Shown here: piece by piece, positions 13,823 to 44,523 of the stretch | How the letters are laid out: each line of letters starts with the position of its first letter | Numbering within the stretch: the first letter of the stretch is position 1 | Assembly: GCF_014647915.1 (NCBI RefSeq) | Contig: NZ_BMQC01000005.1 | Coordinates: forward strand, 124,001 to 188,000 | Source: Pilimelia terevasa | GTDB taxonomy: Bacteria > Actinomycetota > Actinomycetes > Mycobacteriales > Micromonosporaceae | Direction of reading: 5' to 3' | Length of the DNA stretch: 64,000 nucleotides | Translations under genes and position numbers: made by a program | Notes under the pieces: generated by a model | What the model saw: the letters and a program-made list of their open reading frames with translations, nothing else | Told to the model about the DNA's origin: nothing | Databases searched by the model: none

Positions 13823-14588
13823 CCGGACCCGCACCGGCGCCGGGTCCGCCGCCGCCGGCAGCCTGCGCCCCGCCGTCCGCCTGCACTCCGCCCTCGGCCT
13901 GCGCCCCGCCGTCCGCGCCGGGGACGCCCGCAAGGACCGGCCAGGCCGGTCGGGCCCAGGCCAGGGCGTCCTCCTCGTGCCGGCGCAGGGTGGTGAACCG
14001 GGACCAGCCGGCCAGCAGGGTGTACGCCGTCGCCGCGCACAGGGCCGGCGCGAGCACGTCGCCGCGGACCAGCGGCAGGACCCCGCCGAGCCGGTACACC
14101 TGCGTCGCCCGCAGGTCCGCGGGCTTGGCCAGCCTGGTCCCCGCCGCGGAGTCCAGCAGCGCCCGGTAGTCGGCGAGGCCGATCTGCCGGCCGACCCACC
14201 ACGCCACGACGCCCGCGGCGACCGCGCCCAGGACCAGCGCGCCGAGCTGCCCGACGCCCCGGTACCGGCGCAGGAGCACCCAGGCCGCCACCGCGGCCGC
14301 GCCGCCGAGACCCGCGCCCAGCATCGTGAACCACGCGTCGGCGGCGGCGAACTGCTCCGGCTGCGGACTGGTCAGCGCCGGGCCGGCGGCCGTCATCCGC
14401 AGCGGCACGTCGGGGGCCAGCGCCTGCCACAGCAGCCCGAGCGGCACGCCGGCCACCGCCAGCGCGCCCACGAGCGCAGCGTGCCGGACCCAGCCGCCGC
14501 GCCGCGCGGGCCGCGGCGCGGCGAGGGCGGCCGCCTCCGCCGCCCCCACGCCCACCGGCGCCGGCCAGGCCGGCCCGTCGGTGCTCAC
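13737..14588 (-). CDS. DUF2567-like membrane protein with a repetitive C-terminal tail
   Basis: A 283-residue protein with four predicted membrane helices (about 35-57, 88-110, 117-138 and 180-200) and conserved [12 protein letters not shown] and PLVRGDVL loops; the layout matches DUF2567 proteins of actinobacteria. GTG 14588 overlaps the dnaE stop by 4 bases (GTGA), so it is translationally coupled to dnaE. The last 60-70 residues are low complexity, built from GGAQA-type hexapeptides encoded by an 18-bp tandem repeat, and the frame runs 86 bases into the convergent LON-domain gene. This suggests the original stop was lost. Function unknown. Confidence 0.7.
13861..13914. repeat. Three tandem 18-bp units in the DUF2567 tail
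   Basis: Units 13861-13878 and 13897-13914 are identical; the middle unit 13879-13896 differs at a few positions. In frame they encode the hexapeptide pattern (D/E)GG(A/V)QA. Copy number may vary between strains. Confidence 0.7.
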
Positions 14589-17500
14589 CCGGTCACCGCA
14601 CTCGGGCCGAGCAGGGCCTTGAGGTCGGCCTTCAGCGCCGTGGTCGGCGCCACCCGGTGCGGGTTCAGGCGCAGCAGCCGGACCCGGCTGCCCTGGGTCA
14701 GCCGGACGTGCACCTCGGCGTTGCCCGGGTGGCTGACCAGCACCTCCCGCAGCCGGTCGACCGTCGGCGGGGTGCACCGCGGCGTGGGCAGGTTCAGCAC
14801 CAGCGGCCGCACCTCGTCGACGGCCGTGATCTCCGGGACGGACAGGTCCATCGCCATCAGCCGGGGCTGGTCGTCGCGCCGGTCGACCCGGCCCTTGACC
14901 ACCACGATCGCGTCCTCGGCGATGTACTGGCCGACCAGCTCGTAGGTGTTGGGGAAGAACAGCACCTCGACCGCCCCGCCCAGGTCCTCCAGCGTGGCCG
15001 AGGCCCACGCCCGGCCCTGCTTGGTGATCCGGCGCTGCACCCCGGACAGGATCCCGGCCAGCGCCAGCACCTGGCCGTCGCCGACCCCGCCCTCCTCGCC
15101 GAGCGCGGCGATGGGCATGTCCGCCGCGGCCGAGAGCACGTGCTCGACGCCGAGCAGCGGGTGGTCGGAGACGTACAGCCCGAGCATCTCGCGCTCGAAG
15201 GCCAGCAGGTCGGCCTTGTCCCACTCCGAGGCGGGGATGCTGGGCGTGACGGTCATGGGGGTGCCGGTGTCGCCGCCGGCCCCGAACGCGTCGCCGAACA
15301 GGTCGTACTGGCCGACCGCCTCGTTCTTCTTCAGGTCCATGAACGACTCGACCGCGTCGGCGTGCACGGTCAGCAGCCCGCGCCGCGGGTGGGTCATCGA
15401 GTCGAACGCGCCCGCCTTGATCAGCGACTCGATCGACTTCTTGTTGCAGGCCACCGCGTCGATCTTGCGCAGGTAGTCGTAGAAGTCGGTGTAGGCGCCC
15501 TTCTCCCGGCGGCAGCGCACGATCGACTCGACCACGTTGGTGCCGACGTTGCGGACCGCGGCCAGGCCGAACCGGATGTCGGTGCCGACGGCGGCGAACC
15601 GGGCGCGGGACTCGTTGACGTCCGGCGGCAGCACCTTGATGCCCATCCGCCGGCACTCGGCCAGGTAGATCGCCGACTTGTCCTTGTCGTCGCCGACGCT
15701 GGTCAGCAGCGCGGCCATGTACTCGGCCGGGTGGTTGGCCTTGAGGTAGGCCGTCCAGTAGGAGACCAGGCCGTACGCGGCGGAGTGGGCCTTGTTGAAG
15801 GCGTAGTCGGAGAACGGGACCAGGATGTCCCACAGGGTCTTGATCGCCGCTTCGGAGAAGCCCTTGGCCTTCATCCCGTCGGAGAACGGGACGTACTCCT
15901 TGTCCAGGATCTCCTTCTTCTTCTTGCCCATGGCCCGGCGCAGCAGGTCGGCGGCGCCGAGGGTGTACCCGGCGAGCTTCTGCGCGATCGCCATGACCTG
16001 CTCCTGGTACACGATCAGCCCGTAGGTGTCGCCCAGGATGTCCTCCAGCGCGTCGGCCAGCTCCGGGTGGATCGGGACCACCGGCTTGCGCTTGTTCTTG
16101 CGGTCGGCGTAGTCGTTGTGGGCGTTGGCGCCCATCGGGCCGGGGCGGTAGAGGGCGCCGACGGCGGAGATGTCCTCGAAGTTGTCCGGCGCCATCGAGC
16201 GCAGCAGCGCGCGCATCGGCCCGCCGTCGAACTGGAACACGCCGAGGGTGTCGCCGCGGCCGAGCAGCTCGTAGGTGGCCCGGTCGTCCAGCGGCAGCGT
16301 CTCCAGGACCAGGTCGACGCCCTTGTTGTCGCGGATGCCGTCGAGGCAGTCGTCCATGATGGTCAGGTTGCGCAGGCCCAGGAAGTCCATCTTGAGCAGG
16401 CCGATGTTCTCGCACGCGCCCATGTCCCACTGGGTGATGATCGCGCCGTCCTGCTCGCGCTTCTGGATCGGCAGGACGTCCACCAGCGGGTCGCGGGACA
16501 GGATCACGCCCGCGGCGTGCACGCCCCACTGGCGCTTGAGGCCCTCCAGGCCCTTCGCCGTGTCGACGATCTTGGCGACCTCGGCGTCGGACTCGTAGAG
16601 CTGGCGGAACTCCACCGCCTCCGGGTACCGCTTGTGCGAGGGGTCGAAGATGCCGGTCAGCGGGATGTCCTTGCCCATCACCGCGGGCGGCATCGCCTTG
16701 GTGATCCGGTCGCCCATGGCGAACGGGTAGCCCAGGACCCGGGAGGCGTCCTTGATCGCGGCCTTCGCCTTGATCGTGCCGTAGGTGATGATCTGCGCCA
16801 CCCGGGCGTCGCCGTACTTCTCCGTGGCGTAGCGGATCATGTCGCCGCGGCGGCGCTCGTCGAAGTCCATGTCGATGTCGGGCATCGAGATGCGGTCGGG
16901 GTTGAGGAAGCGCTCGAACAGCAGGCCGTGCTGCATCGGGTCCAGCTCGGTGATGCCCAGCGCGTAGGCGATCAGGGCGCCGGCCGCGGAGCCGCGCCCC
17001 GGGCCGACCCGGATGCCCTCCCGCTTGGCGTAGGCGACCAGGTCGGCGGTGACCAGGAAGTAGCCGGGGAAGCCCATCGTGAGGATGACGTCCAGCTCGT
17101 ACTCGGCCTGCTTCAGCCGGTCCTCCGGCACCCCGCCCGGGAAGCGGCGGCGGAGGCCGGCGAACACGTCGCGGCGCAGGACCGACTCCTCGGTCTCCCC
17201 CGGCGGCACCGGGAACTGCGGCATCAGGTTGCGGGCGGCGAACACCGAGGAGTAGTCGCCGATCTTCTCCGCCACCTCCAGCGTGTTGTCGCAGGCGCCG
17301 GGCACCTCCGCGTCCCACAGCGCGCGCATCTCCGCGGCGGACTTGAGGTAGAAGTCGCGGGCGTCGAAGCGGAACCGCTTCGGGTCGGCCATGGTGGAGC
17401 CGGACTGCACGCACAGCAGCACCTCGTGCGCGTCGGCGTCCCGGGCGTACGTGTAGTGCAGGTCGTTGGTGGCCAGCGGCTTGAGCTGGAGCCGGCGGCC

Positions 17501-18118
17501 CAGCCGGATCAGGTCGGCGCGGACCCGGTTCTCGATGTCCAGGCCGTGGTCCATCAGCTCCAGGTAGAAGTTGTCGCGGCCGAAGATGTCGGCGAACTCG
17601 CCGGCCGACTCGCACGCCTTCTCGAAGTTGCCGATCCGCAGCCAGGTCTGGATCTCGCCGGACGGGCACCCGGTGGTGGCGATGACGCCCCTGCCGTACG
17701 CGTGCAGCAGCTCCCGGTCGGCCCGCGGCTTGAAGTAGTAGCCCTCGATGCTGGCCCGCGACTGCATCCGGAACAGGTTGTGCAGGCCCTCGGCGTCGGC
17801 GGCCAGCATCGTCATGTGGGTGTAGGCGCCGCCGCCGGAGACGTCGTTCTCCCCGCCCTCGGCCCAGCGGACCCGGGTGCGCTCCTGGCGGGGGGTGTTC
17901 GGCGTGACGTAGCTCTCCACCCCGATGATCGGCTTGACGCCCGCCCGGGTGGCCTGCTGGTAGAAGTCGTACGCGCCGAACATGTTGCCGTGGTCGCTCA
18001 TCGCCAGGGCCGGCATCTGGAGCCGGTTCGCCTCGGCGAACAGGTCGCCGAGCCGGGCCGCCCCGTCCAGCATCGAGTACTCGGTGTGGACGTGCAGGTG
18101 CACGAACGGGTCCGTCAT
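14585..18118 (-). CDS. dnaE: Replicative DNA polymerase III alpha subunit DnaE
   Basis: The 1177-residue catalytic subunit of the replicase. The N-terminal PHP domain opens with [16 protein letters not shown] and includes MSDHGNM. The polymerase palm carries [18 protein letters not shown], with the catalytic aspartates; GPGRGSAAG and [28 protein letters not shown] are also present. A C-terminal OB-fold domain ([13 protein letters not shown]) follows. Length matches actinobacterial DnaE1. The ATG has AAGGAGCCGC before it. A second, error-prone homologue (dnaE2) lies near the right end of the window. The DUF2567 gene is coupled at its 3' end. Confidence 0.97.
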
Positions 18119-18263: not shown

Positions 18264-19991
18264 TCAGCCGGTGAACGGCTCCATGATCGCTCCGGCGGCG
18301 CGCAGCCAGGCCGCCCGGGTCTCCGGGCGCAGCTCGTGGTGGTCGATGGAGGAGCCGGCCTCCAAGGCCGGGTCGTAGGGCACGCTGACCACGGCACGGG
18401 TCCGGGTGGCGAAGTGCCGCTCCAGGTCTTCGGCGAGCGCCGAGCGTGCCGGCGTCGTACTCGACACCAGGGTCACCGACCGGTCGGCGAGCGCGCCCAG
18501 GCCGACCTCGTGCAGCAGGTCCAGCATCCAGTCGGCGGCGAAGGCGGCGTCCTCGCGCGGGACCGTGGTCACCACGAGCTGGTCGCAGCCGCGCAGGACG
18601 GTCTGCCAGTTGGCGCTCTGCACGTTGTTGCCGGTGTCGACGCACACGACGTCGTGGGTCCGCCGCAGCAGGTCCAGGACCCGCTGGACGGTGACGGCGT
18701 CGAGCTGCTGGGCGAACCGGGGGTTCTCCTCGCCCGCGAGGATGTCGTAGGAGCCGTCGGGGGCGTGCCGCAGGTAGTCGTCGAGCTCGGAGCGCAGCGC
18801 GGCCGGCGGCGCCTGTTCGATGCGCTCCAGGTCGCCGACCAGGTGCCGGATGGTGCGCGCGTGCCGCGCGCTGCCCGCGCGCAGGCCCAGGGTGCCGCGC
18901 AGCTCGTTGTCGTCCCAGGCCACCACGCCCCGCCCGCGGACGGCGCCGATGGTCGCGGCGGCCAGGACCGTGGCGGTGGTCTTGTGGACGCCGCCCTTGG
19001 GGTTGGCGAACGCGATCACCCGGGGGCCGCCGAAGCCGCGCCGCAGCCGCACGGCCGGGTCGTCGCCGTCGCGGGGGGCGGCGGCGTGGAACGACAGCTC
19101 GCCGCCGAAGTCGGCCAGCAGGGCGGCGCCGTACCCGGGCAGGGCGCCGGGGTCGACGTCCAGGCGGGGGTAGCCGGCGGCCGGCGGCTGGCGGGTCCAG
19201 TCGGGCGCGCGTGCCGCGGGGTCGTGCGGGGTCAGCGGGTCATCGGCGCCCGCGGGCCGGCGGACTCCGTGGTCGGCGGCGTCAGCGGGCCGGCGGACAG
19301 CGGCGGCGCTGTCGGTGTCGGTGTCGGCGGTGTCGATGTCGGTGTCGGTGGCAGGAGGGGTGGCGGCGTGGTACCCGGGCGGACCGGTCCACGCCGCGTC
19401 CGGCACCAGGTCGCGCTCGTCGCGGTCGTCGTCGCGGTCGCGGCGGTGGTCGTGGCGGTCGTGCGGATGATGGCGGGCGTGGGGGTGATGGCGTGCGTGC
19501 GGGTCTCGGGGCCGCGCGGGCGGGTCGCCGGTGGGGTGCTCGTCGTCCCCGTCCGGGTCGCCGGGCGCCGCCCACTCCCCCGGCCCGGCGCCGGAGTCCC
19601 GGTCCGGGTGGCCGGCGGGGCGCCAGGGGGCGGCGGTCTCGGCGGACCAGCGCGCGTCCGGCGGCGCGACGTCCGCGGTCGGGTCCGCGCCGTCCCAGCG
19701 GTCGTCCTCCGGCGCGGGCGCCCACTCCTCGGCCGGCGGCGCGGCGAGCCGCTGCTGGGGCGGCTCCCAGATCGGCTCCGACAGGCGGGCCAGCGGGTGG
19801 CGGGCGGCGGCGCTGACGTAGGTGGCGCCGCCGCGCTCCGGCCAGCCGGCGGCCGGGTCGAGCCAGGACAGGTCGTCCTCCGCCGCGGCCGGGGCGTCCT
19901 CGGGCCGGGTGCCGCGCGCCCGGTCCAGCAGCGCGCGCCATCGCGGTGCGGGGTGTCCCCCACGCTCCCGATCGACTTCGGCGCCCTCCAC
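18264..19991 (-). CDS. ParA/MinD-like ATPase with long low-complexity N-terminus
   Basis: A 575-residue protein. Residues about 320-575 are a MinD/ParA-type (SIMIBI) P-loop domain: VIAFANPKGGVHKTTAT (332-339 is the deviant Walker A, where His replaces the usual Gly of KGGVGKT), VAWDDNE, VCVDTGNNVQSANW (Walker B region) and LVVTTVPREDAA. Residues 1-320 are Pro/Ala/Asp/Arg-rich, with a His-rich block (about 163-194) and a TD repeat, and are probably disordered. GTG 19991 is chosen because GGGAGG lies 5 bases upstream; the longer open frame upstream is antisense noise. The membrane-anchored gene upstream is a possible partner. Such ATPases act in positioning or secretion; the cargo is unknown. 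Confidence 0.8.
   Translation of the reverse strand: MEGAEVDRERGGHPAPRWRALLDRARGTRPEDAPAAAEDDLSWLDPAAGWPERGGATYVSAAARHPLARLSEPIWEPPQQRLAAPPAEEWAPAPEDDRWDGADPTADVAPPDARWSAETAAPWRPAGHPDRDSGAGPGEWAAPGDPDGDDEHPTGDPPARPRDPHARHHPHARHHPHDRHDHRRDRDDDRDERDLVPDAAWTGPPGYHAATPPATDTDIDTADTDTDSAAAVRRPADAADHGVRRPAGADDPLTPHDPAARAPDWTRQPPAAGYPRLDVDPGALPGYGAALLADFGGELSFHAAAPRDGDDPAVRLRRGFGGPRVIAFANPKGGVHKTTATVLAAATIGAVRGRGVVAWDDNELRGTLGLRAGSARHARTIRHLVGDLERIEQAPPAALRSELDDYLRHAPDGSYDILAGEENPRFAQQLDAVTVQRVLDLLRRTHDVVCVDTGNNVQSANWQTVLRGCDQLVVTTVPREDAAFAADWMLDLLHEVGLGALADRSVTLVSSTTPARSALAEDLERHFATRTRAVVSVPYDPALEAGSSIDHHELRPETRAAWLRAAGAIMEPFTG
19311..19350. repeat. Imperfect GGTGTC hexanucleotide tract
   Basis: A run of near-identical 6-base units encodes the Thr-Asp alternation (TDTDIDTADTDTD) in the disordered half of the ParA-like protein. 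Likely prone to length change. Confidence 0.55.
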
Positions 19992-20090
19992 GCTTGCCTC
20001 CCAGCACCGTCCGCTCGCCGTCGCCGGCCGCGAACCTCTCCGACCTCGGCCCGTGGACCGGCCACGCGGGGGCGGCGGTCCACCGGGCGG

Positions 20091-20137
20091 GCATCCGCCC
20101 ATCGGGAGTTTCAACGCGGCACAAGAAGGGCGGATGC
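20091..20137 (-). terminator. Hairpin after the membrane-anchored gene
   Basis: A 10-bp perfect stem (GCATCCGCCC at 20091-20100, GGGCGGATGC at 20128-20137) with a 27-base loop begins 3 bases after the stop of the gene ending at 20141. There is no U-tract, so it could be a processing or attenuating hairpin rather than a full terminator before the ParA-like gene. Confidence 0.4.
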
Positions 20138-20140
20138 GAC

Positions 20141-20968
20141 TTAGCGCGTATTCGGCACTTTCGGGACACATCCGCTGGACGTTCCGCCCCCGCACTCCTG
20201 GTCCGGCAGCGGCGGGAGGAACACGGTCCGGTCCAGCCGCCGGACCTCCGGCGCCGGGTCGACGATCCGCACCTCCGGCTGGGTCGCCACCCGCGCCAGG
20301 ACCGCGTGCGGCGCCCGCACCACCAGGGCGTACACGCAGGAGCAGGCGGCCCGCATGGCGGCGGCCTCGGTGCCGACCACCCGGCGCTGCGCCTCGTACG
20401 ACGCGCGCAGCCGGCGGGCCTTCTCGTCGGTGCCGGCCGCGCGCGCGAGCAGCTCCTGGTAGTCGAGCACCTCGCCGTCGAAGCGCAGCGCGACCTGGCC
20501 CATGCCGGCCACCACGTCCTCGGGCACCCGGAACGCATCGATCTTGACCACCCGGGTGTCCACGCCGGGCAGCGGGACCTTGGCGAAGACCGCCGAGACC
20601 GACAGTCCGCCGACCAGCGGCGGGAGCCGGTCCGGCGCCAGGTAGGCGGTGAGGGTGACCAGGGCGTACGCCTCCTCGGCCGGCGCCGCCGCGGCCAGCG
20701 CCCGGAGCTGGGCGCGGCTGGCCTTCAGGTACCCGGTCACGCTCTCGCCCGGCCCGGCACCCACCCGGGCCGAGGGCTCGGCGGCCGCCCGGCTGCCCGG
20801 CCGGCCGCCCTGCCACACGGCGAAGCTCAGCAGCAGCACCAGCCCCAGGCCGCCGGCCGACAGGGGCACCCGCGCGCGGCGGCACCGGCGCATCAGCCCG
20901 CGCAGGCCCGCCGCCAGCCGGGGCAGCGCCCACGCGTCCAGCCGACGCAGCGCGGCGGCCAGACGCAC
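20141..20968 (-). CDS. Membrane-anchored protein of unknown function
   Basis: A 275-residue protein with a basic N-terminus, one membrane helix at about 37-53 (LSAGGLGLVLLLSFAVW) and a C-terminal domain that should be extracytoplasmic. That domain contains YALVTLTAYLAP, GLSVSAVFAKVPLPGVDTRVVKI and a CSC motif near residue 206. I recognise no family. GTG 20968 lies one base after the rluD stop, so it is in the same operon, between rluD and the ParA-like ATPase. Its position beside a MinD/ParA-like protein suggests a membrane partner, which is inference only. Confidence 0.72.
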   Translation of the reverse strand: MRLAAALRRLDAWALPRLAAGLRGLMRRCRRARVPLSAGGLGLVLLLSFAVWQGGRPGSRAAAEPSARVGAGPGESVTGYLKASRAQLRALAAAAPAEEAYALVTLTAYLAPDRLPPLVGGLSVSAVFAKVPLPGVDTRVVKIDAFRVPEDVVAGMGQVALRFDGEVLDYQELLARAAGTDEKARRLRASYEAQRRVVGTEAAAMRAACSCVYALVVRAPHAVLARVATQPEVRIVDPAPEVRRLDRTVFLPPLPDQECGGGTSSGCVPKVPNTR

Positions 20969-20969
20969 C

Positions 20970-21898
<929 letters not shown>

Positions 21899-21902
<4 letters not shown>

Positions 21903-22489
21903 GCCTGTACCTCCGTCGTGTCGCCGCGCCGCGATCCGTCGCGGGGCCGGCCGGTGAACTCCAGGAACACGGCCAGGACGACGCCGCAGACCAGGGCGCT
22001 GTCGGCGAGGTTGAACACCGGCCAGATCCGGCCGTAGGGGTCGAACAGCGAGACCATGTCGACCACGTGCCCCCGGAACACCCCGGGCGCCCGGAAGACC
22101 CGGTCGGTCAGGTTGCCGAGGACGCCGCCCAGGATCAGCCCGAGCGACACCGCCCAGGGAAGCGACCGCACGCCGCGGGCGAGCCAGACCAGGAACCCGA
22201 TCATGATGACCGCGAAGATCGGGAAGATCCACGTGTAGTCGCCGCCGAGGCTGAACGCGGCGCCGCTGTTGCGGGTGAGCGACAGGTAGAGCACGCCGCC
22301 CCACAGCCGGACCGGCACCTCGTCGGCGAGCTGCGCCAACGCCACCTGCTTGGTGACCACGTCGCCGGCCAGGATCGCCGCGGCCAGGCCGCCCAGCAGC
22401 CACACCGCCCGCCCCGGACCCGACGGCGCGCCCGCCGACCCGCGCTCTGGACCCACGCCCCACCTCCCACGCCCGGTCGCCCGGGGCAT
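21899..22489 (-). CDS. lspA: Lipoprotein signal peptidase LspA
   Basis: A membrane aspartyl peptidase (196 residues) that cleaves the signal peptide of prolipoproteins after lipidation. Four helices are visible, with the two catalytic Asp motifs GNLTDR and FNLADS, plus [12 protein letters not shown] choose ATG 22489 because the minus strand has a TAGATT -10 at 22506-22511, which places the transcript start near 22499, downstream of a possible earlier start at 22549. AAAGG just before the ATG is a usable ribosome site. It leads the lspA-rluD-membrane protein-ParA-like set. Confidence 0.92.
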
Positions 22490-25340: not shown

Positions 25341-25772
25341 TCACGACCGGCGGGCCGCGGGGCGCAGCAGCGCCTCGGCGGGCTGGCACCACCGGCAGGA
25401 CGCCAGCCCGGCCGACACCGCCGCGCCGACCGGGACCTGCCGGCCGCCGTCGGCGGCCAGGTCGCCGCAGCCGTCGAGGTGGAACGACGCGCCGCCCTCG
25501 GTCACCCGCACGGCCGCGGTCATCGCCGCCAGCCGGGCCAGGTTGCCCGGCGTGACCTGCCGCGGCGTGCGGGTGGGGCGCGGGATCCGGGGCCCGCCCG
25601 CGGGTGCGGCTGCCGGCGGCGTCGCCTGCCGGACGCCGACCAGCAGCGCGGCGCCGGCCAGGAGGCTGACGAGGATCGATCCGCCGAACAGCGGGCCGGA
25701 GCCGGCGGCGGCGCCGATGCCGAACAGCGCGACCGCGGCGAGGATGAGCAGCAGGCTACCGACCACCATCAC
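25341..25772 (-). CDS. Small two-helix membrane protein with His/Cys C-terminal motif
   Basis: A 143-residue protein. Two membrane helices (3-24 and about 28-45) are followed by a Pro-rich linker and a soluble tail with FHLDGC and, about 30 residues later, SCRWCQPAE. The H-x3-C ... CxxC spacing resembles small zinc-binding or Ada-like modules seen at the ends of actinobacterial membrane proteins. I do not recognise a named family. GTG 25772 or the ATG next to it can start it. It sits just downstream of divIVA on the same strand. Confidence 0.6.
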   Translation of the reverse strand: MMVVGSLLLILAAVALFGIGAAAGSGPLFGGSILVSLLAGAALLVGVRQATPPAAAPAGGPRIPRPTRTPRQVTPGNLARLAAMTAAVRVTEGGASFHLDGCGDLAADGGRQVPVGAAVSAGLASCRWCQPAEALLRPAARRS

Positions 25773-25807: not shown

Positions 25808-26632
25808 TCAGCGGCCGCCGGCGTCGATGCCGGTGCGGCCGTACGGCCCGGACAGGCCGGCGGTGGCGAGGCCGCCCCCGGCGGCGGCAGCGGCTCCGCG
25901 GGCGGCGTCCGCGCGGCTCATCTCGGCCTCCAGGCCCTGGCCCCGCCCGTCGAGGTCCCGGAGCTGGCTCTCCAGGTACGCCTTGAGGCGGGTGCGGTAC
26001 TCCCGCTCGAACTGCTTGAGCTCCTCGATGTGCTTCTGCAGCGCCGACCGCTTGGCCTCCAGGCCGCCCATGGCCTCCTGGTGCCGCTGGCGGGCGTCGC
26101 GCTCCAGGGCGTCGGCCTTGGCGCGGGCCTCGCGGGTGACCTCCTCGGCCTTGGACCGGGCGTCCGAGAGGAGCTTGTCGGCCTCGCGGCGGGCGTCGTT
26201 GACGTGGTCGTCGGCGGTGCGCTGGGCCATCATGAGGACCCGCAGTGCCTGCTGCTCGCCGTCAGCGGTGGTCTGCGGCGCGGCGGCCGGCGCCGGCGCC
26301 GGGCCCTGGGCACGCATCTGCTCCAGCTCGCCCTGCATGGCGCGGGCGGCCTGCTCGGCGGCGGCCTTGTCCCGCTGCACCCGGTCGAGCTGCGCCTTCA
26401 GGTCGTTCATCTCGGCGGCCATGCGCGGGTCGCCCCCCGCCGCCGCCGGGGCACCCCGGCCACCGCCGCGCTCCACCTGGGCGCGCAGCTCGTTGTTCTC
26501 CTCGATCAGACGGGCGAGTTCGCGCTCGACCTCGTCCAGGAAGGCGTCGACCTCCTCCTCGTCGTAGCCCCGTTTGCCAATCGGGGGCTTCTTGAAGGCG
26601 ACGTTGTGCACGTCGGCCGGGGTCAGCGGCAT
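25808..26632 (-). CDS. divIVA: DivIVA/Wag31 polar growth protein
   Basis: A 274-residue coiled-coil protein. The N-terminal membrane-binding domain reads [34 protein letters not shown], then a linker rich in Ala/Gly/Pro, and a long second coiled-coil (about 145-235: [19 protein letters not shown], then [19 protein letters not shown]). DivIVA binds curved membrane and recruits the cell wall machinery at poles and septa in actinobacteria. GGAG lies about 5 bases before the ATG. It closes the sepF-yggT-divIVA side of the dcw cluster. Confidence 0.95.
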
Positions 26633-27077: not shown

Positions 27078-27740
27078 TCAGCTCTGGTTGAAGAACCCGC
27101 CCTCCGCGATCTTGGCCTTGTCCTCGGCGGTTACCTGCACGTTGGCTGGTGAGAGCAGGAACACCCGATTCGTGACGCGTTCGATCGTACCGCGCAGACC
27201 GAACGCCAGGCCGGCGGCGAAGTCGACGAGCCGCTTCGCGTCCGACTCGTCCATCTCCGTCAGGTTCATGATCACCGGGACGTCGTCGCGGAAGTGCTCG
27301 CCGATCGTGCGCGCCTCGTTGTATGTGGTGGGGTGCAGCGTGGTGATCTGGTACCGGCGCTCGGGCTCCTCGACCGCGACGGGCCGCTCGCGCGGCGTGG
27401 GCGGGGCCGTCTGCGTGGCCAGGGCGAGGTTGTCCTGGGTAGCGAAGCCGCCCCCGCCAGTGGTCGGGCCGGTCCGGGTGATCGAGCGCACCCGGGCGCC
27501 CGCGGCGGCGCGCTCCGCGCGCTCGGCCCGCTCCGCGCGCATCTCGGCGACCCGCTCCCGCGCCCGGGGCACCGGCGGCTCGTCGTCGTCCTCGTCCTCG
27601 TCGTCGTAGCTGTCGGCCACGGGGCGCGACCGGTAGCCCGACTCCCGGTAGCCCGGCTCGTCGTACTCCCGGTCGTACGCGCGGTCGTCATCCTCCTCGA
27701 TGAGTCCGAGCCACACTCCGGCCTTGCGCATTGCGCTCAC
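27078..27740 (-). CDS. sepF: Cell division protein SepF
   Basis: A 220-residue FtsZ membrane anchor. The N-terminal amphipathic helix ([17 protein letters not shown]) is followed by an acidic/Arg-rich linker and the SepF domain (about 125-220: [62 protein letters not shown]). Actinobacteria lack FtsA, and SepF takes its place in tethering FtsZ. GTG 27740 is preferred to the ATG three codons later because GAGGTGG lies upstream. It has its own 130-base upstream gap with a palindrome and is probably transcribed separately from yggS-ftsZ. Confidence 0.93.
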
Positions 27741-27824
27741 GCGCCCACCTCGCTCCGCTGGCGTCTTTCCGCCACTCACCCACACACCGACCCCGATGAT
27801 CTTTCGGCATCATGCCCGGCTGGT

Positions 27825-27870: not shown

Positions 27871-28698
27871 TTACCCCGGCGTCGCACGCTTTCCGAGGAC
27901 GGCGCTGCCGACCCGCACATGTGTCGCACCGCACGCCACCGCCTCCTCCAGATCTCCACTCATGCCCGCCGACAGCAGCGCCGCCTGCGGGTACGCCGCG
28001 CGCACGCGCGCGGCGAGATGCTGCAACCGGTCGAACGCCGCCGCCGGCCGCTCCCCCAGTGGCGCGACGGCCATCAGCCCCCGCAGCCGCAGCGCCCCGG
28101 CGCCGGCCACCGCCGCCAGCACCCGGTCCAGCCCCGTGTCGGGGTCGTCGCCGGACACCGCCCCGCCGCGCGCGGCCGCGTCGGGCCCGGCGTCCAGCGA
28201 CACCTGCACCAGCACGTCCAGCGGCGCCGGCCGCAGCCGGGCCGCGGCGCCGGCCAGCGCCCCGGCCAGCCGGACGCTGTCCACCGAGTGGACGGCGTCG
28301 GCGTAGGTGACCACCGAGGCGGCCTTGTTGCGCTGGAGCTGGCCGATGAAGTGCCAGCGCGGCGCGGGGCCGGCCGCCGCGACGGCGGCCGCCTTCGGTG
28401 CGGCCTCCTGGTCGCGGTTCTCGCCGACCTCGGTGACGCCGAGGGCGACCAGGTGGCCGACGTCCGCCGCCGGGTAGGTCTTGGTGACCACGACCAGGGT
28501 CACCGCGTCGGCCGCCCGACCGGCGGCGGCCGCGGCCGCGGCGACGCGCGCGCGGACCGCGGCCAGCCCGGCGGCGATCTCCGCCCGACGCGCCGCTGAC
28601 CGGTCGGGGTCGGCCCGCCGCGGCGCGGCGGGGTCGGGGCCGGCCGGCACCGGCCGCCGTACTGTCCCGGGACCGTCCGGCGAGGGGGAGCCGGACAC
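27871..28698 (-). CDS. YggS-family PLP-binding protein (YlmE)
   Basis: A 275-residue PLP homeostasis protein. After an unconserved 35-residue head, the fold type III barrel is visible: LVVVTKTYPAADV (the Lys binds PLP), VTEVGENRDQEA, WHFIGQLQRNK, HSVDSVRLA, LRGLMAVAPLGE and LSAGMSGDLEEAVACGATHVRVGSAVLG. It has no enzymatic activity in the known family and buffers pyridoxal phosphate. GTG 28698 starts 4 bases after the ftsZ stop. In many actinobacteria ylmD/pgeF separates ftsZ and this gene; here it is missing. Confidence 0.92.
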   Translation of the reverse strand: MSGSPSPDGPGTVRRPVPAGPDPAAPRRADPDRSAARRAEIAAGLAAVRARVAAAAAAAGRAADAVTLVVVTKTYPAADVGHLVALGVTEVGENRDQEAAPKAAAVAAAGPAPRWHFIGQLQRNKAASVVTYADAVHSVDSVRLAGALAGAAARLRPAPLDVLVQVSLDAGPDAAARGGAVSGDDPDTGLDRVLAAVAGAGALRLRGLMAVAPLGERPAAAFDRLQHLAARVRAAYPQAALLSAGMSGDLEEAVACGATHVRVGSAVLGKRATPG

Positions 28699-28702
28699 GG
28701 GT

Positions 28703-29833
28703 TCAGGAGCCGTTCTTGAGGAAGTCCGGCACGTCCACGTCGTCGAACAGCACCCGCCGCGCGGGCTGGGCCGGCGGCGGCGCGGCCGGCGCGGGGGCCG
28801 GGGCGGGCGGAGCCGCGGCCGGTACCGGGTGGGCGGGCAGGGGCTGCGGCACGATCCGCGCGGTCTCCGCCGGCCGGTAGGCCGGGGTGCCGCCGTCGAA
28901 GCCGGCTGCTATGACCGTCACCCGGACCTCGTCGCCGAGCGCGTCGTCGATGACCGCGCCGAAGATGATGTTGGCATCGGGGTGGGCGGCGTCGGTGACG
29001 AGCTGCGCCGCGTCGTTGATCTCGAACAGGCCCAGGTCGGAACCGCCCGCGATCGACAGCAGCACCCCCCGGGCGCCGTCCATGCTCTGCTCCAGCAGCG
29101 GGCTGGAGATGGCCGACTCGGCGGCGTCGACGGCCCGCTTCTCGCCGCGGGCGCTGCCGATGCCCATGAGCGCGCTGCCGGCGCCGCTCATGACGCTCTT
29201 GACGTCGGCGAAGTCCAGGTTGATCAGGCCGGGCGTGGTGATCAGGTCGGTGATCCCCTGCACCCCGGAGAGCAGGACCTGGTCGGCCTGGCGGAACGCG
29301 TCCATCATGCTCATGCCGCGGTCGCCCAGGGCGAGCAGCCGGTCGTTGGGGATGACGATGAGCGTGTCGCACTGGTTGCGCAGCTCCTCGATCCCGGCCT
29401 CCGCCTGGACCTGGCGGCGCTTGCCTTCGAAGGAGAACGGCCGGGTGACGACGCCGATGGTCAGCGCGCCGAGCTTGCGGGCGATCTGCGCCACGACAGG
29501 CGCGCCGCCGGTACCGGTGCCGCCGCCCTCGCCGCACGTGACGAAGACCATGTCGGCGCCCTTGAGCACCTCCTCGATCTCGTCGCGGTGGTCCTCCGCG
29601 GCGTTCTTGCCGACATCGGGCTGCGCCCCGGCGCCGAGCCCGCGGGTCAGCTCCCGGCCGACGTCGAGCTTGACGTCGGCGTCACTCATGAGCAACGCCT
29701 GGGCATCGGTGTTGATCGCGATGAACTCGACGCCCTTGAGGCCGACCTCGATCATCCGGTTGACGGCGTTGACGCCGCCACCACCGATGCCCACGACCTT
29801 GATGACCGCGAGGTAGTTGTGCGGAGGTGTCAT
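28703..29833 (-). CDS. ftsZ: Cell division GTPase FtsZ
   Basis: The 376-residue tubulin homologue that forms the Z ring. Key parts are [23 protein letters not shown], the tubulin signature [45 protein letters not shown] and the T7-loop aspartates. A 60-residue Ala/Pro linker leads to the conserved C-terminal peptide [12 protein letters not shown], which binds SepF/FtsW partners. The gene has its own promoter (29935-29963) in the 273-base gap after ftsQ. The leader is about 95 nt and has AGGGA before the ATG. Confidence 0.97.
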
Positions 29834-40516: not shown

Positions 40517-42820
40517 TCAGGGGAAGAAGACGAACGTCGGCGGCCGGACGGTGGTCGGCGGCACCTTCGCCCGGGTCAGGGCGAAGGCCATGATGTCGCG
40601 GAAGGCGGGCGCGGCGACGGCGCCGCCCTCGCCGCCGGGCGTGTGGGCGAACACGGCCACCACGAACCGGGGCGCCTCCGCCGGCGCCATGCCCACGAAC
40701 GAGGCCACCTCGCCGGGCGTGTACCGGCTGTCCACGACCTGCTTGCCGGTGCCCGTCTTGCCCGCCACCCGGTACCCGCGCACCGCCGCCCCGTTGCCGG
40801 TGGCGCCGCGCACGCTCACCACCGCCTCCATCGCGTGCCGCAGCGCCGCCGCGTTCGCGCTGTTGAGGACCGCCCGGCGGACCGGCGGAGGCCCGGGGCG
40901 GACCTTGCCGTCGGGGCCGATCACCTCCCGGACGAGGTGCGGCTGGATCCACGTGCCGTTGTTGGCGATCGCGGCGTAGGCGGCGGCGACCTGTACCGGC
41001 GTCGCGGCCACGCCGTGGCCGATGGGCACCGACCCGTACGACGACGGGCTCCACCGCTCGGGCGGCTGGACCAGGCCGGCGGCCTCGCCGGGCACGCCGA
41101 CGCCGGTCGGCTTGCCCAGGCCGAAGCGGCGCTGGTACTCGTACAGCTTCGGCGCGCCGAGCCGGTCAGCGATCTTGATGGTGCCGACGTTCGACGAGTA
41201 CGCCAGGATCCCGGCCAGCGACACGTCGCGCGGCCGGTAGTACGGGTGCGTGTCGGCAAACTGCGTGTCGCCCTTGGTGATCGTCGGCCCGATCTCGACC
41301 GCGGTGTCGGGGCGGATCGCGCCCTCCTGCAGCGCGGCGCCGAGCACGAGCGCCTTGTGGACCGAGCCGGGGTCCACGACCGCGCTGGTCGCCTGGTCCT
41401 CGCGGGCCTTGGCCGGCTGGCGCAGCGGGTCGGCGGCGTCGTACGTCGGGTAGCTGGCCTGCGCCACCACCTCGCCGGTGGCCGGGTCCAGCACGACGGC
41501 CGCCGCCCACGTGGCGCCGACCGAGTTCATGTGCTGGAACAGCGTGCGCTGGGCGTGGAACTGAAGGTCCCGGTCCAGGGTCAGCCGCAGCGAGCTGCCC
41601 GGCTGGGCGGGCGTCTCCTTCTGGTACCCGCCGGGGATCGCCATCGACTCGTAGGAGCCGCCGTCGGCGCCGCGCTCGAACACCCGCTCGCCGTCGCGGC
41701 CGCGCAGCAGCGAGTCGAATTTGGCCTCCATGCCCTCCAGGCCGTCGAGGTCGGCGCCGGTGAAGCCGATCAGGTTGGCGGCCAGGTCGTGGCCGGGTAC
41801 CTCGCGCCGCTCGTCGTGGGCGGTGTGGACACCGACGAGCCGGAGGGCGGCGACCTGCGCGGCGGTCTCGGGGGTGACGCCGCGCTGGAGGTACTCGAAC
41901 TCCGCGGGCCGGCCGTCGTCGCGGGCGTGCGGGGTCAGCTTGGGCAGCAGCGCCGAGCTGGCGACGCCGAGCAGGGGCGTGAGGAGCCGGGCCACGGCCG
42001 CCGGGTCCTCCACCTTGCTCGGGTCGGCGTAGATGTAGCGGGCCTCGACGCTGCGGGCCAGGACGGCGCCGGACCGGTCGAGGATCGCGCCGCGCTTGGC
42101 GGGCAGGGGCACGCTGTCCAGACGGCTGCGCAGGCCGTCGCGGGCGAACGCCGACGCGTCGGTGACCTGGAGGCCGACCAGGCGCACGCCGACGACGGCG
42201 AACATCGCCAGCGCCAGGAAGGTGGCCAGGCGCAGGCGGCGGGGGGGGTCGCCGAGCTTGGGGGGCGCGGGCCGGCGGGCCGCGGGACGGCGGCGCGGGG
42301 CGGCCGGGCGCGGCGCGGGCCGCGGCTGCGCGGCGCTCCCGGCAGCGGGCTCCCGGGTGCCGGCGCTGCGGACCGCGGCCTTCCGGCTCCCGGCGCCGCG
42401 GGTGCCGGTCCGGGTGCCGGTGCTCCGGGTGCCGGTGGATGCCGCGGTGCTCCGGCCCGCCGTGGGCTTCGCCGGGGCGGCACCCGCGGGCGGCGTGGCC
42501 GCGGGCCGCGGGCGGGGCGCCGCCGGGCCGCGGCGGACGCGGGCCGCGCGGGGCGCAGGTGCGTCGTCGTCGCCCTCGTCCGGGTCCTCGTCGGTGGGCG
42601 GGGCCGCGGGGCGCTGCCGCGCCGGGCGGCGCCGGGCCGGCGCGTCGGGACTCTCGCCGTCGACCACCCGCAGCGCCGGCCGGAACGGGTCGGCTGCCCG
42701 CGGCTGCTCGCGGACCGTCCGCCCGCGCGGCGTGTACCGCCGGGCGTCGCCGATCCTGCCGCGGCCGGCGCGGCGGGTGCCGGGGGCGTCGTCGTCGCCG
42801 GGCTCGGCGGGACCGGGCAC
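40517..42820 (-). CDS. ftsI: Septal transpeptidase (class B PBP) FtsI
   Basis: A 767-residue class B penicillin-binding protein. A 195-residue Arg/Pro/Ala-rich disordered cytoplasmic segment precedes one membrane helix (about 197-217). The dimerisation region ([39 protein letters not shown]) and the transpeptidase domain follow with SVHK (active-site Ser), SSN and KTGT motifs. FtsI cross-links septal peptidoglycan with FtsW. The N-terminal tail is long compared with E. coli FtsI (about 25 residues) and includes TGTR repeats. GTG 42820 lies 3 bases after the ftsL-like stop. Confidence 0.94.
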
Positions 42821-42823
42821 GCG

Positions 42824-43408
42824 CTACCTCCCGGCCCGTCGCTCGTTGCTTCTGGTGATGTCCTGTTTATCGGAACGTGACCCCGTCCGGGCGGCCACCG
42901 GATCGGTGAGCGGACTGGGCAGCTCGACCTTGCGACCGTTCGGCAGCGTGATGACGGCCGGCTGGCCGTCGTAGGTCATCCCCAGCCGCTCCGCGGCCCG
43001 GTACAGGGAGTTCGGCGCCTCGGCGTCCTCGATCTTCTTGCGCAGCTCCGCCTCCTCCTGGTCCAGGGCGGCGTGCTGCTGCTGGAGGGTCTGGAGCTTG
43101 AAGGCGTTCTCCATCACGGTCGTGTTGACCACGAGGATGCCCAGCACCCCGCCGACGACCACGAGCAGCAGCAGCGCGACGAACGGCGCGCGCGGGACCG
43201 CCACCGGTGCCGGCGGCGCCACGGTCAGCCACGACGCGGCGCGCCGCCGCGGCGCGGCGGGCTGCGCGGCGAGCGCGGTGGCCCCGTCGACCGGCGGCGC
43301 CGGCCGCCCGGCCCGCGCCTGGTCGGTGTGGTGCGCCGCGGTCCGACCCCCGGACCGCGGTGCACCGGTGCGGCGCCGTGCGGCCCCGCCCCCCGGTACG
43401 GCGTTCAT
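42824..43408 (-). CDS. FtsL-like septum formation protein
   Basis: A 194-residue bitopic protein. An approximately 75-residue basic, disordered head is followed by one membrane helix ([20 protein letters not shown]), then a coiled-coil ([31 protein letters not shown]) and a short tail with [11 protein letters not shown]. Position between rsmH and ftsI and this topology identify the FtsL/DivIC class. Sequence conservation of this family is low, so assignment rests on topology and position. The ATG overlaps the rsmH stop (ATGA) and has GGGAGG upstream. Confidence 0.85.
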
Positions 43409-44523
43409 GTCGCCTCCCCTGTCTCGTCCCCTGTCCCCCACGCCCCCGGGGGCGGTGTCCGCCGCTGGCCGGACCGTTCGCGGACGGTCCCCCCGGTGCG
43501 GCGGTACGGACGCCTCGCGGCGCCCCGGTCGGCCGTGGCAGCGGCCTGTGTGTCGAACGCGGCGATCCGCTCCGCGGCGCGCAGCCGGACCGACTGCGCG
43601 CGCGGGTTCGCCGCCACCTCCTGCTCCGAGGCCAGCTCGGCCCCCCGGGTCAGCAGCCGGAACGTCGGCCCCATGCCCGGCAGCTCCACCGGCAGCTCCA
43701 CCGGCGCGCTGCTGCGCACCCGCGGCGCCAGGACCTGTTTGGTGAGCCGGTCCTCCAGCGAGTGGTAGGACAGGACCACCAGGCGGCCGCCCGGCGCCAG
43801 CGCGTCCAGCGCCGCCGGCAGCGCCGCCTCCAGCGCCGCCAGCTCCTGGTTGACCTCCATGCGCAGGGCCTGGAAGGTCCGCTTGGCCGGGTGTCCCCCC
43901 GTCCGCCGGGCCGCCGCCGGGATCGCGTCCCGGACGAGGTCGGCCAGGCGGGCCGAGCTGACCAGCCGCCCGCGGGACCGTTCCCGGCCGATGGCCGAGA
44001 CGATCCGCGGAGCGAACTTCTCCTCCCCGTACACCCGCAAAACCCGGATCAGGTCCTTTTCGGAGTATTCGTTGAGGATCTCCTCGGCGGTGACGCCCGT
44101 GGACTGGTCCATCCGCATGTCCAGCGGCGCGTCCTGGGCGTACGCGAAGCCCCGGTCGGCCGCGTCGAGCTGGAGCGAGGAGACGCCCAGGTCGAACAGC
44201 ACGGAGTCGGCGTGCGGCAGGCCCAGCCCGGCCAGCGCCCCGGGAAGCCCGTCGTAGACGGTGTGCACGAGGCGCACGCGGTCACCGAAGGGCGCCAGGC
44301 GCGCCCGGGAGTGGGCCAGCGCCTCGGTGTCGCGGTCGAGGCCGACGACGACGACGTCCGGGTCCGCCCGCAGGACGGCCTCGGCGTGCCCGCCCAGGCC
44401 GACCGTGGCGTCCACGTGCACCGGCGTCCGCCCGGCGCCGGCCGCGGCCCGCAGCGCGGGGGTGAGCAGCGCCAGGCACCGCTCCAGGAGAACCGGCACG
44501 TGCGTGCCGCGCAGCTCCCCCAT
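43405..44523 (-). CDS. rsmH: 16S rRNA (cytosine1402-N4)-methyltransferase RsmH
   Basis: A 372-residue SAM methyltransferase. Starts [19 protein letters not shown], then [15 protein letters not shown] (SAM site), [67 protein letters not shown] and [12 protein letters not shown]. It modifies the decoding-site C1402 of 16S rRNA. It follows mraZ after a 206-base gap with an unusual inverted repeat; the ATG has GAGGGGG before it. Confidence 0.96.

What the first reader, a model, noticed from the sequence alone, without database searches (positions are those of the whole stretch)
18264..20968. ParA-like ATPase with KGGVHKTT Walker A, His-rich tail and a membrane-anchored neighbour
The ATPase has His in place of the second conserved Gly of KGGVGKTT, a change that should affect nucleotide handling, and carries a 320-residue disordered head with a HARHHPHARHHPH block. 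The gene upstream encodes a one-helix protein with an external domain. Together they could be an unstudied positioning or export pair linked to dnaE and lspA.
Basis: partly seen in the sequence, partly recalled or inferred. Interest (0 to 1): 0.55.

Follow-up and report, generated by a model that had tools for sequence, protein, structure and literature searches.

The report
Family-wide ParA-like protein beside divIVA
A soil-bacterium family (Micromonosporaceae) keeps, at the end of its cell-division gene cluster, an apparently unstudied ParA/MinD-like protein with an unusual but fixed histidine in its nucleotide-binding loop; the membrane protein beside it is a frequent but seemingly dispensable companion.

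Summary
The ATPase gene is 18264-19991 (-), 575 aa; the membrane gene is 20141-20968 (-). The His position is a free X in the deviant Walker A consensus KGGXXK[S/T]; SopA has Tyr there (PMC9178275), and relatives have His, Ser or Ala. Both lysines and, in alignment, the catalytic acids are kept. The HARHHPH block overlaps an 18-bp tandem repeat and does not recur. The membrane gene was not found in 20 of 61 family genomes, 19 of which have the ATPase. dnaE adjacency is patchy; rluD linkage is strong. New here: a conserved N-terminal tag (PRWRALLDRAR-like) on a variable Pro-rich linker; a place after ftsZ-sepF-divIVA-lspA-rluD; plasmid relatives often beside conjugation genes. Best reading: a chromosomal ParA/MinD-type positioning ATPase for envelope growth or division. 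Function is inferred.

The parts
18264..19991 (-). ParA/MinD-like ATPase gene, 575 aa, GTG start, GGGAGG with a 5-nt spacer
   Evidence: orthologues
18975..18998 (-). deviant Walker A KGGVHKTT; H aligns with MinD G15, the following K with K16, the first K with K11
18264..19049 (-). conserved ATPase core, ParA/MinD fold (288-residue model, mean pLDDT 86.0; VIA Z 25.3, rmsd 2.9, 231 aligned residues to P. furiosus MinD)
19914..19991 (-). conserved N-terminal tag VEGAEVDRERGGHPAPRWRALLDRAR
   Evidence: pattern in 34 of 38 loci and 73 of 80 (6 of the 7 misses are cut by a contig end and the seventh has a near form); 0 of 30 outgroup heads
19050..19913 (-). low-complexity Pro/Gly/Ala-rich linker of variable length; disorder inferred from composition only
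19461..19499 (-). HARHHPHARHHPH block, inside an 18-bp tandem repeat of 2.9 copies (19453-19504); not conserved
20141..20968 (-). single-pass membrane protein, 275 aa; patchily kept companion
20807..20860 (-). predicted helix, residues 37-54, read as the transmembrane helix
   Evidence: helix; hydrophobicity and N-terminus-inside orientation read by eye (inference)
20336..20344 (-). C-x-C (C209, C211), both columns invariant in 25 aligned sequences
20970..21902 (-). rluD-type RNA pseudouridine synthase; ends 1 nt before the membrane gene
   Evidence: PseudoU_synth_2; start read by eye
21899..22456 (-). lspA (signal peptidase II), overlapping the rluD start
   Evidence: Peptidase_A8; start read by eye
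25808..26632 (-). divIVA-family gene of the same cluster
   Evidence: DivIVA
14585..18118 (-). dnaE (DNA polymerase III alpha), next gene downstream here
   Evidence: adjacency

Best explanation
It is the Micromonosporaceae form of an actinobacterial ParA/MinD-like ATPase lineage, fixed on the chromosome at the end of the ftsZ-sepF-divIVA-lspA-rluD run. It most likely works as a positioning switch for envelope growth or division: it binds ATP, dimerises through the deviant Walker A lysine, and is brought to its place by a conserved N-terminal tag (PRWRALLDRAR-like) on a long flexible linker. In many species the one-helix neighbour couples it to the outside of the membrane. SHOWN: the fixed His, retained lysines and acidic pair in alignment, ParA/MinD-type predicted fold, N-terminal tag, gene neighbourhood, relatives beside plasmid transfer genes, and a patchily present membrane gene. 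INFERRED: ATP-driven cycling, linker flexibility, localisation, the division or tip-growth role, contact between the two proteins, and descent from a mobile-element ATPase.
For: Orthologues in 59 of 61 Micromonosporaceae genomes (the window's own included; one, G005, is a contig-end fragment); apart from these two, core identity to the window is 61-76%. H invariant in 39 of 39 aligned sequences and 80 of 80 named loci. One clade, 100/100. K11 and K16 equivalents invariant; D38/D40 equivalents: DDN in 36 of 39, DNN in 3. FleN, Soj, MinD and ParA head the fold matches (best E 4.0e-12; first 24 rows Z 22.1-25.3). rluD upstream on the same strand in 33 of 38 loci. Window cluster confirmed by Pfam for MraW, a transpeptidase, MraY, Mur ligase, FtsW, FtsZ, SepF, YggT, DivIVA, SPase II, pseudouridine synthase and DNA polymerase III. 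N-terminal tag in 34 of 38 and 73 of 80, 0 of 30 outgroup heads. Nearest named NCBIfam models include MinD and the actinobacterial septum-site protein Ssd, but far below cut-off. The genome has nine AAA_31 places, seven scoring higher than this one, so segregation is probably served elsewhere.
Against: Neighbourhood in a stable core cluster is weak evidence of function; in three loci (L066, L068, L069) no rluD lies near. The best NCBIfam match is a partition ParA, not a division protein (34.5 bits, cut-off 180). The alignment with MinD is weak (hhalign probability 43.7, E 0.00024) and shows no MinD-like C-terminal membrane helix. The N-terminal tag is no more amphipathic than its shuffles. Partners such as ParB or MinC were not searched for by model. 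The membrane gene is often missing. No expression or activity data. The head (beyond the core) was not modelled.
Confidence: 0.45

Rival explanations
1. Nucleotide-handling variant: the invariant His before the Walker lysine makes a slow or non-cycling ATPase, a ParA-type scaffold that binds nucleotide but hardly turns over.
For: H is fixed across the family; the position is Gly in most listed superfamily members (Table 1 of PMC9178275, passage); the MinD D40-equivalent is Asn in 3 of 39, and D40A blocks MinD ATPase activity in B. subtilis (PMC13246001, passages).
Against: The consensus allows any residue there and SopA has Tyr; relatives carry KGGAHKT, KGGASKT, KGGAAKT; both lysines and, in 36 of 39, both acids are kept.
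Confidence: 0.2
2. Conjugation- or secretion-type ATPase kept on the chromosome, still serving a transfer or export machine together with the membrane protein.
For: Plasmid relatives in 373 records; of five neighbourhoods read, four have SCO6880-family, TraM-recognition or type IV DNA-transfer genes and a cell-wall peptidase nearby.
Against: No transfer family among the 18 window proteins scanned around it; the membrane protein has no match in plasmids at E 0.01 nor in ORFs of the 30 relative loci; the fifth plasmid stretch showed no such genes.
Confidence: 0.15
3. Two-gene positioning pair, the membrane protein being the dedicated receptor.
For: Same strand, between rluD and the ATPase, in 24 of 38 loci plus the window; found in 70 of 80 named loci (7 of the 10 misses have no rluD in the stretch held).
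Against: Not found in 20 of 61 family genomes (16 of the 57 good assemblies), 19 of the 20 having the ATPase; 10 changes on the tree, at least 5 forced; a short remnant in L059.
Confidence: 0.15

Closest known systems
Paralogue in the same genome (KGGAGKT, G000:C10), beside an adenylosuccinate synthetase-like gene (name from my reading)
   Same: About 40% core identity, long Pro-rich head, W-D-N-N-E and D-T-G-N-N motifs
   Different: Gly before Lys, no N-terminal tag, other locus; I know no family name for it
ParA-like ATPases of actinobacterial plasmids with transfer genes (Microbacterium sp. J1-1, Cryobacterium arcticum pP27867_2)
   Same: 41% core identity; KGGAHKT, so His before Lys also occurs here
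   Different: Plasmid-borne beside transfer genes (PLSDB types the first as non-mobilizable, the second as mobilizable); head without the tag; outside the chromosomal clade
MinD / Soj / FleN (ParA/MinD superfamily)
   Same: Fold and deviant Walker A with signature lysine
   Different: No MinD C-terminal membrane helix in alignment; no PDB sequence match at E 0.001 for the profile, marginal ones above
SopA (ParA of F plasmid)
   Same: Non-Gly residue before the Walker lysine, KGGVYKT (PMC9178275 Table 1, passage)
   Different: SopA is a type Ia ParA with an HTH head (type Ia described in the passage; SopA's place in it recalled); no HTH domain in this head by Pfam

Membership tests
ParA/MinD superfamily (deviant Walker A ATPases) | KGGXXK[S/T] with signature lysine | tested here: met
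   K45, G46, G47, K50, T51 invariant in 39 of 39; consensus from PMC9178275, passage
ParA/MinD superfamily (deviant Walker A ATPases) | ParA/MinD three-dimensional fold | tested here: met
   model mean pLDDT 86.0, pTM 0.85; Foldseek E 4.0e-12 to FleN; VIA Z 25.3, rmsd 2.9, 231 residues to MinD
ParA/MinD superfamily (deviant Walker A ATPases) | catalytic acid of switch I (MinD D40) | tested here: met
   D74 aligns with D40 in a weak profile alignment and in MAFFT; D in 36 of 39, N in 3
MinD | C-terminal amphipathic membrane helix | tested here: not met
   the family sequence ends before the last 21 residues of E. coli MinD
MinD | passes the curated NCBIfam MinD cut-off | tested here: not met
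   16.8 bits against 212.9 for the window core
Chromosomal or plasmid partition ParA | cognate parB gene beside it | tested here: inconclusive
   no ParB family among 18 window proteins scanned with Pfam; not every small ORF was scanned
Chromosomal or plasmid partition ParA | passes the NCBIfam ParA_partition cut-off | tested here: not met
   34.5 bits against 180 for the window core
Transfer-linked ParA-like ATPases of actinobacterial plasmids | transfer genes alongside | tested here: not met
   division and core genes instead among 18 proteins scanned
Transfer-linked ParA-like ATPases of actinobacterial plasmids | same clade as the plasmid proteins | tested here: inconclusive
   separate 100/100 clade; deep joins weak and long branches meet
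Any of these | ATP hydrolysis and dynamic localisation | not testable with these tools
   needs bench work

The most novel reading that the evidence does not exclude
A ParA-type ATPase from conjugative elements was captured into the division cluster of Micromonosporaceae and close families, where it became a family-wide spatial regulator of hyphal tip growth or septation. It is recruited by a new N-terminal tag and works with a histidine-bearing P-loop that alters its nucleotide cycle.
Probability: 0.15. Interest if true: 0.65.

Novelty: new variant of a known kind. Interest (0 to 1): 0.4.

Why it matters
How mycelial actinobacteria without a classical Min system (recalled) place division and growth sites is an open question. 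A family-wide ParA/MinD-like gene in the run after ftsZ, sepF and divIVA, with a fixed P-loop variant and a short conserved tag, gives a concrete gene to delete and image in Micromonosporaceae, which make many antibiotics (recalled). It also widens the natural range of residues seen before the Walker lysine.

Tried and rejected
Drift of the His: rejected. In 298 genomes of the order the KGG[V/A]HKT pattern hit 52 of 54 in the family, 3 of 3 in f5, 4 of 5 in f13 and 0 of 236 elsewhere. The three misses were checked: G594 has a copy cut by a contig end; G519 (380 contigs) and G495 show only a paralogue-like match, so loss there is not excluded. In 394 genomes of the class 3 hit KGGVHKTT, the three family members in that sample.

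His-rich block as metal site: rejected as a family feature. Head His content is 5.4% in the window against 0-3.8% in the 38 orthologues' open head frames.

N-terminal tag as an amphipathic membrane helix: hydrophobic moment no better than shuffles, so not claimed.

Membrane protein identity: no Pfam, NCBIfam or PHROGs family at E 1; one member of 25 touched SteA-like_C at E 0.077, taken as chance; PDB sequence profile best E 1.2; Foldseek best E 0.2; VIA best Z 7.9, mostly over the helices, within that tool's stated background. PADLOC: none for either protein. Structural absences are not used as evidence.

ATPase by sequence in PDB: nothing at E 0.01 for the single protein or 0.001 for the profile.

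Absence of the membrane gene rests on a first look in which at most 41 candidates per genome were scored, so 'not found' is the claim. For several of the genomes an independent search of the rluD-ATPase stretch also found none (L033, L037, L044, L051, L052, L055, L063, L064).

Papers: KGGVHKTT is in no paper of the held library. Searches listed nothing on this gene, judged from titles and abstract starts of the rows shown (20 of 43, 10 of 24, 5 of 5). That library is partial. Searches were further listings.

Rows dropped: G005's contig-end fragment was not fetched, so 38 of 39 other orthologues were used. In the tree, L049 was scored as having the membrane gene because one search finds it on another contig of G018; L054 was scored absent although its contig ends there; L059's remnant was scored absent. 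Five of the 15 plasmid rows shown (373 records) were opened.

Full report
What is there. On the minus strand the window carries a division-type cluster. Pfam names MraW (43405-44523), a transpeptidase (40517-42820), MraY, a MurD-like ligase, FtsW, FtsZ (28703-29833), SepF (27078-27785), YggT, DivIVA (25808-26632), a Na/H exchanger, a DksA/TraR zinc finger, signal peptidase II (lspA), a pseudouridine synthase (rluD type) and, downstream, DNA polymerase III alpha; two of the 18 proteins scanned (27871-28698, 25341-25772) had no match. The membrane gene (20141-20968) and the ATPase gene (18264-19991) lie between rluD and dnaE. The ATPase frame is open far upstream, but GTG at 19991 behind GGGAGG, and the conserved N-terminal tag starting there, make 575 aa the likely protein.

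Whose genome. That identification is an inference.

Is the His drift? No. Of 61 genomes (own plus 60 relatives) 58 gave some match. Orthologues at 56% core identity or more were in 39 genomes, the own included, plus one contig-end fragment (G005). I fetched the other 38. In all 38 and in the window the residue before the Walker lysine is His; Val varies once to Ala, in L068. The tree puts the 39 in one clade, 100/100.

Where does the motif occur? In the order sample, in this family and two neighbouring families only: 59 of 298 genomes, 0 of 236 outside those three. In the class sample 3 of 394, all in the family. Outside the clade, two plasmid relatives read KGGAHKT, so His there is not unique.

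Does the His break the ATPase? Probably not. A review gives the consensus KGGXXK[S/T] and lists SopA as KGGVYKT (PMC9178275, passages). Against E. coli MinD (NC_000913), His takes the place of G15, the lysines match K11 and K16, and the acidic pair matches D38 and D40 (hhalign probability only 43.7); the second acid is Asn in 3 of 39. The predicted core has the ParA/MinD fold. Turnover is untested.

The head. Heads vary in length and are rich in Pro, Gly and Ala. They start with a conserved tag, commonly close to V[E/D]GTETGWGRPAEPAPRWRALLDRAR. A five-residue pattern for its core is met in 34 of 38 loci (the misses are L049, cut by a contig end, L066 with a near form, L059 and L069) and in 73 of 80 named loci; six of those seven misses are cut by a contig end and the seventh has a near form. 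A slightly wider pattern is met in 0 of 30 paralogue and plasmid heads. The tail DRAR is less constant in the distant members. The His block lies in an 18-bp tandem repeat and does not recur.

The neighbour. It has an N-terminal stretch, one likely TM helix and an external domain with an invariant C-x-C, with no known family or fold at my thresholds. It lies between rluD and the ATPase in 24 of 38 loci and was found in 70 of 80 named loci. Genome-wide it was found in 41 of 61 family genomes, 41 of 57 good assemblies; the ATPase in 59 of the same 61 (exceptions G469, 82% complete, and G452, 630 contigs, with only the paralogue but a cut membrane gene). Nineteen genomes thus have the ATPase without it. 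In one pair of congeners (G003, G253) one has it and one does not; L059 holds a short remnant. On the ATPase tree its pattern needs 10 changes, and 125 of 500 shuffles do as well. It is a common companion, not a required partner.

Neighbourhood. rluD lies upstream on the same strand in 33 of 38 loci; two misses are contig ends and three have no rluD near, and rluD is in 73 of 80 named loci. dnaE is within 400 bp downstream in 15 of 38 and matched in 11 of 80 named loci.

Wider kin. The genome holds a 40% identical paralogue with KGGAGKT elsewhere; such a second match is in 54 of 61 family genomes. Nine AAA_31 places exist in the genome. In plasmids 373 records match, all below 60% identity. 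I opened five: four contain transfer-type genes, one did not in the stretch read. Three phage-collection records match. This suggests, without proving, a mobile-element background. That partition proteins can help conjugation is in the title of PMC4949242 (listing); that Streptomyces ParA works with a tip-polarity protein is in the title of PMC3718342 (listing).

Conclusion. The inferences from the His, the His block, the obligate pair and the dnaE link do not stand. I file it as a ParA/MinD-superfamily ATPase, new variant of a known kind, probably a positioning factor for envelope growth or division (0.45).

Noticed in passing
window 14585-44523, minus strand: A long division-type cluster (mraW, mraY, ftsW, ftsZ, sepF, divIVA, lspA, rluD) lies in one run with the finding.
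   Followed up: partly
L070:7183-9180 (G000:C10): Paralogue with KGGAGKT and a long Pro-rich head, near an adenylosuccinate synthetase-like gene (name by eye); a 38-43% identical second match occurs in 54 of 61 family genomes.
   Followed up: partly
L192 and L195: Plasmid ParA-like ATPases near SCO6880-family and DNA-transfer genes carry KGGAHKT, an apparently separate occurrence of His before the Walker lysine.
   Followed up: partly
L071:5164-6306: A KGGAAKT ParA-like gene in a Micromonosporaceae genome downstream of a gene that reads like a lytic-transglycosylase/lectin protein; possibly an integrated element.
   Followed up: no
window 20336-20344: C-x-C in the external domain of the membrane protein, both Cys columns invariant in 25 aligned sequences.
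   Followed up: no
window 27871-28698, minus strand: ORF between ftsZ and sepF that I read as yggS but that has no Pfam match at E 0.01.
   Followed up: no
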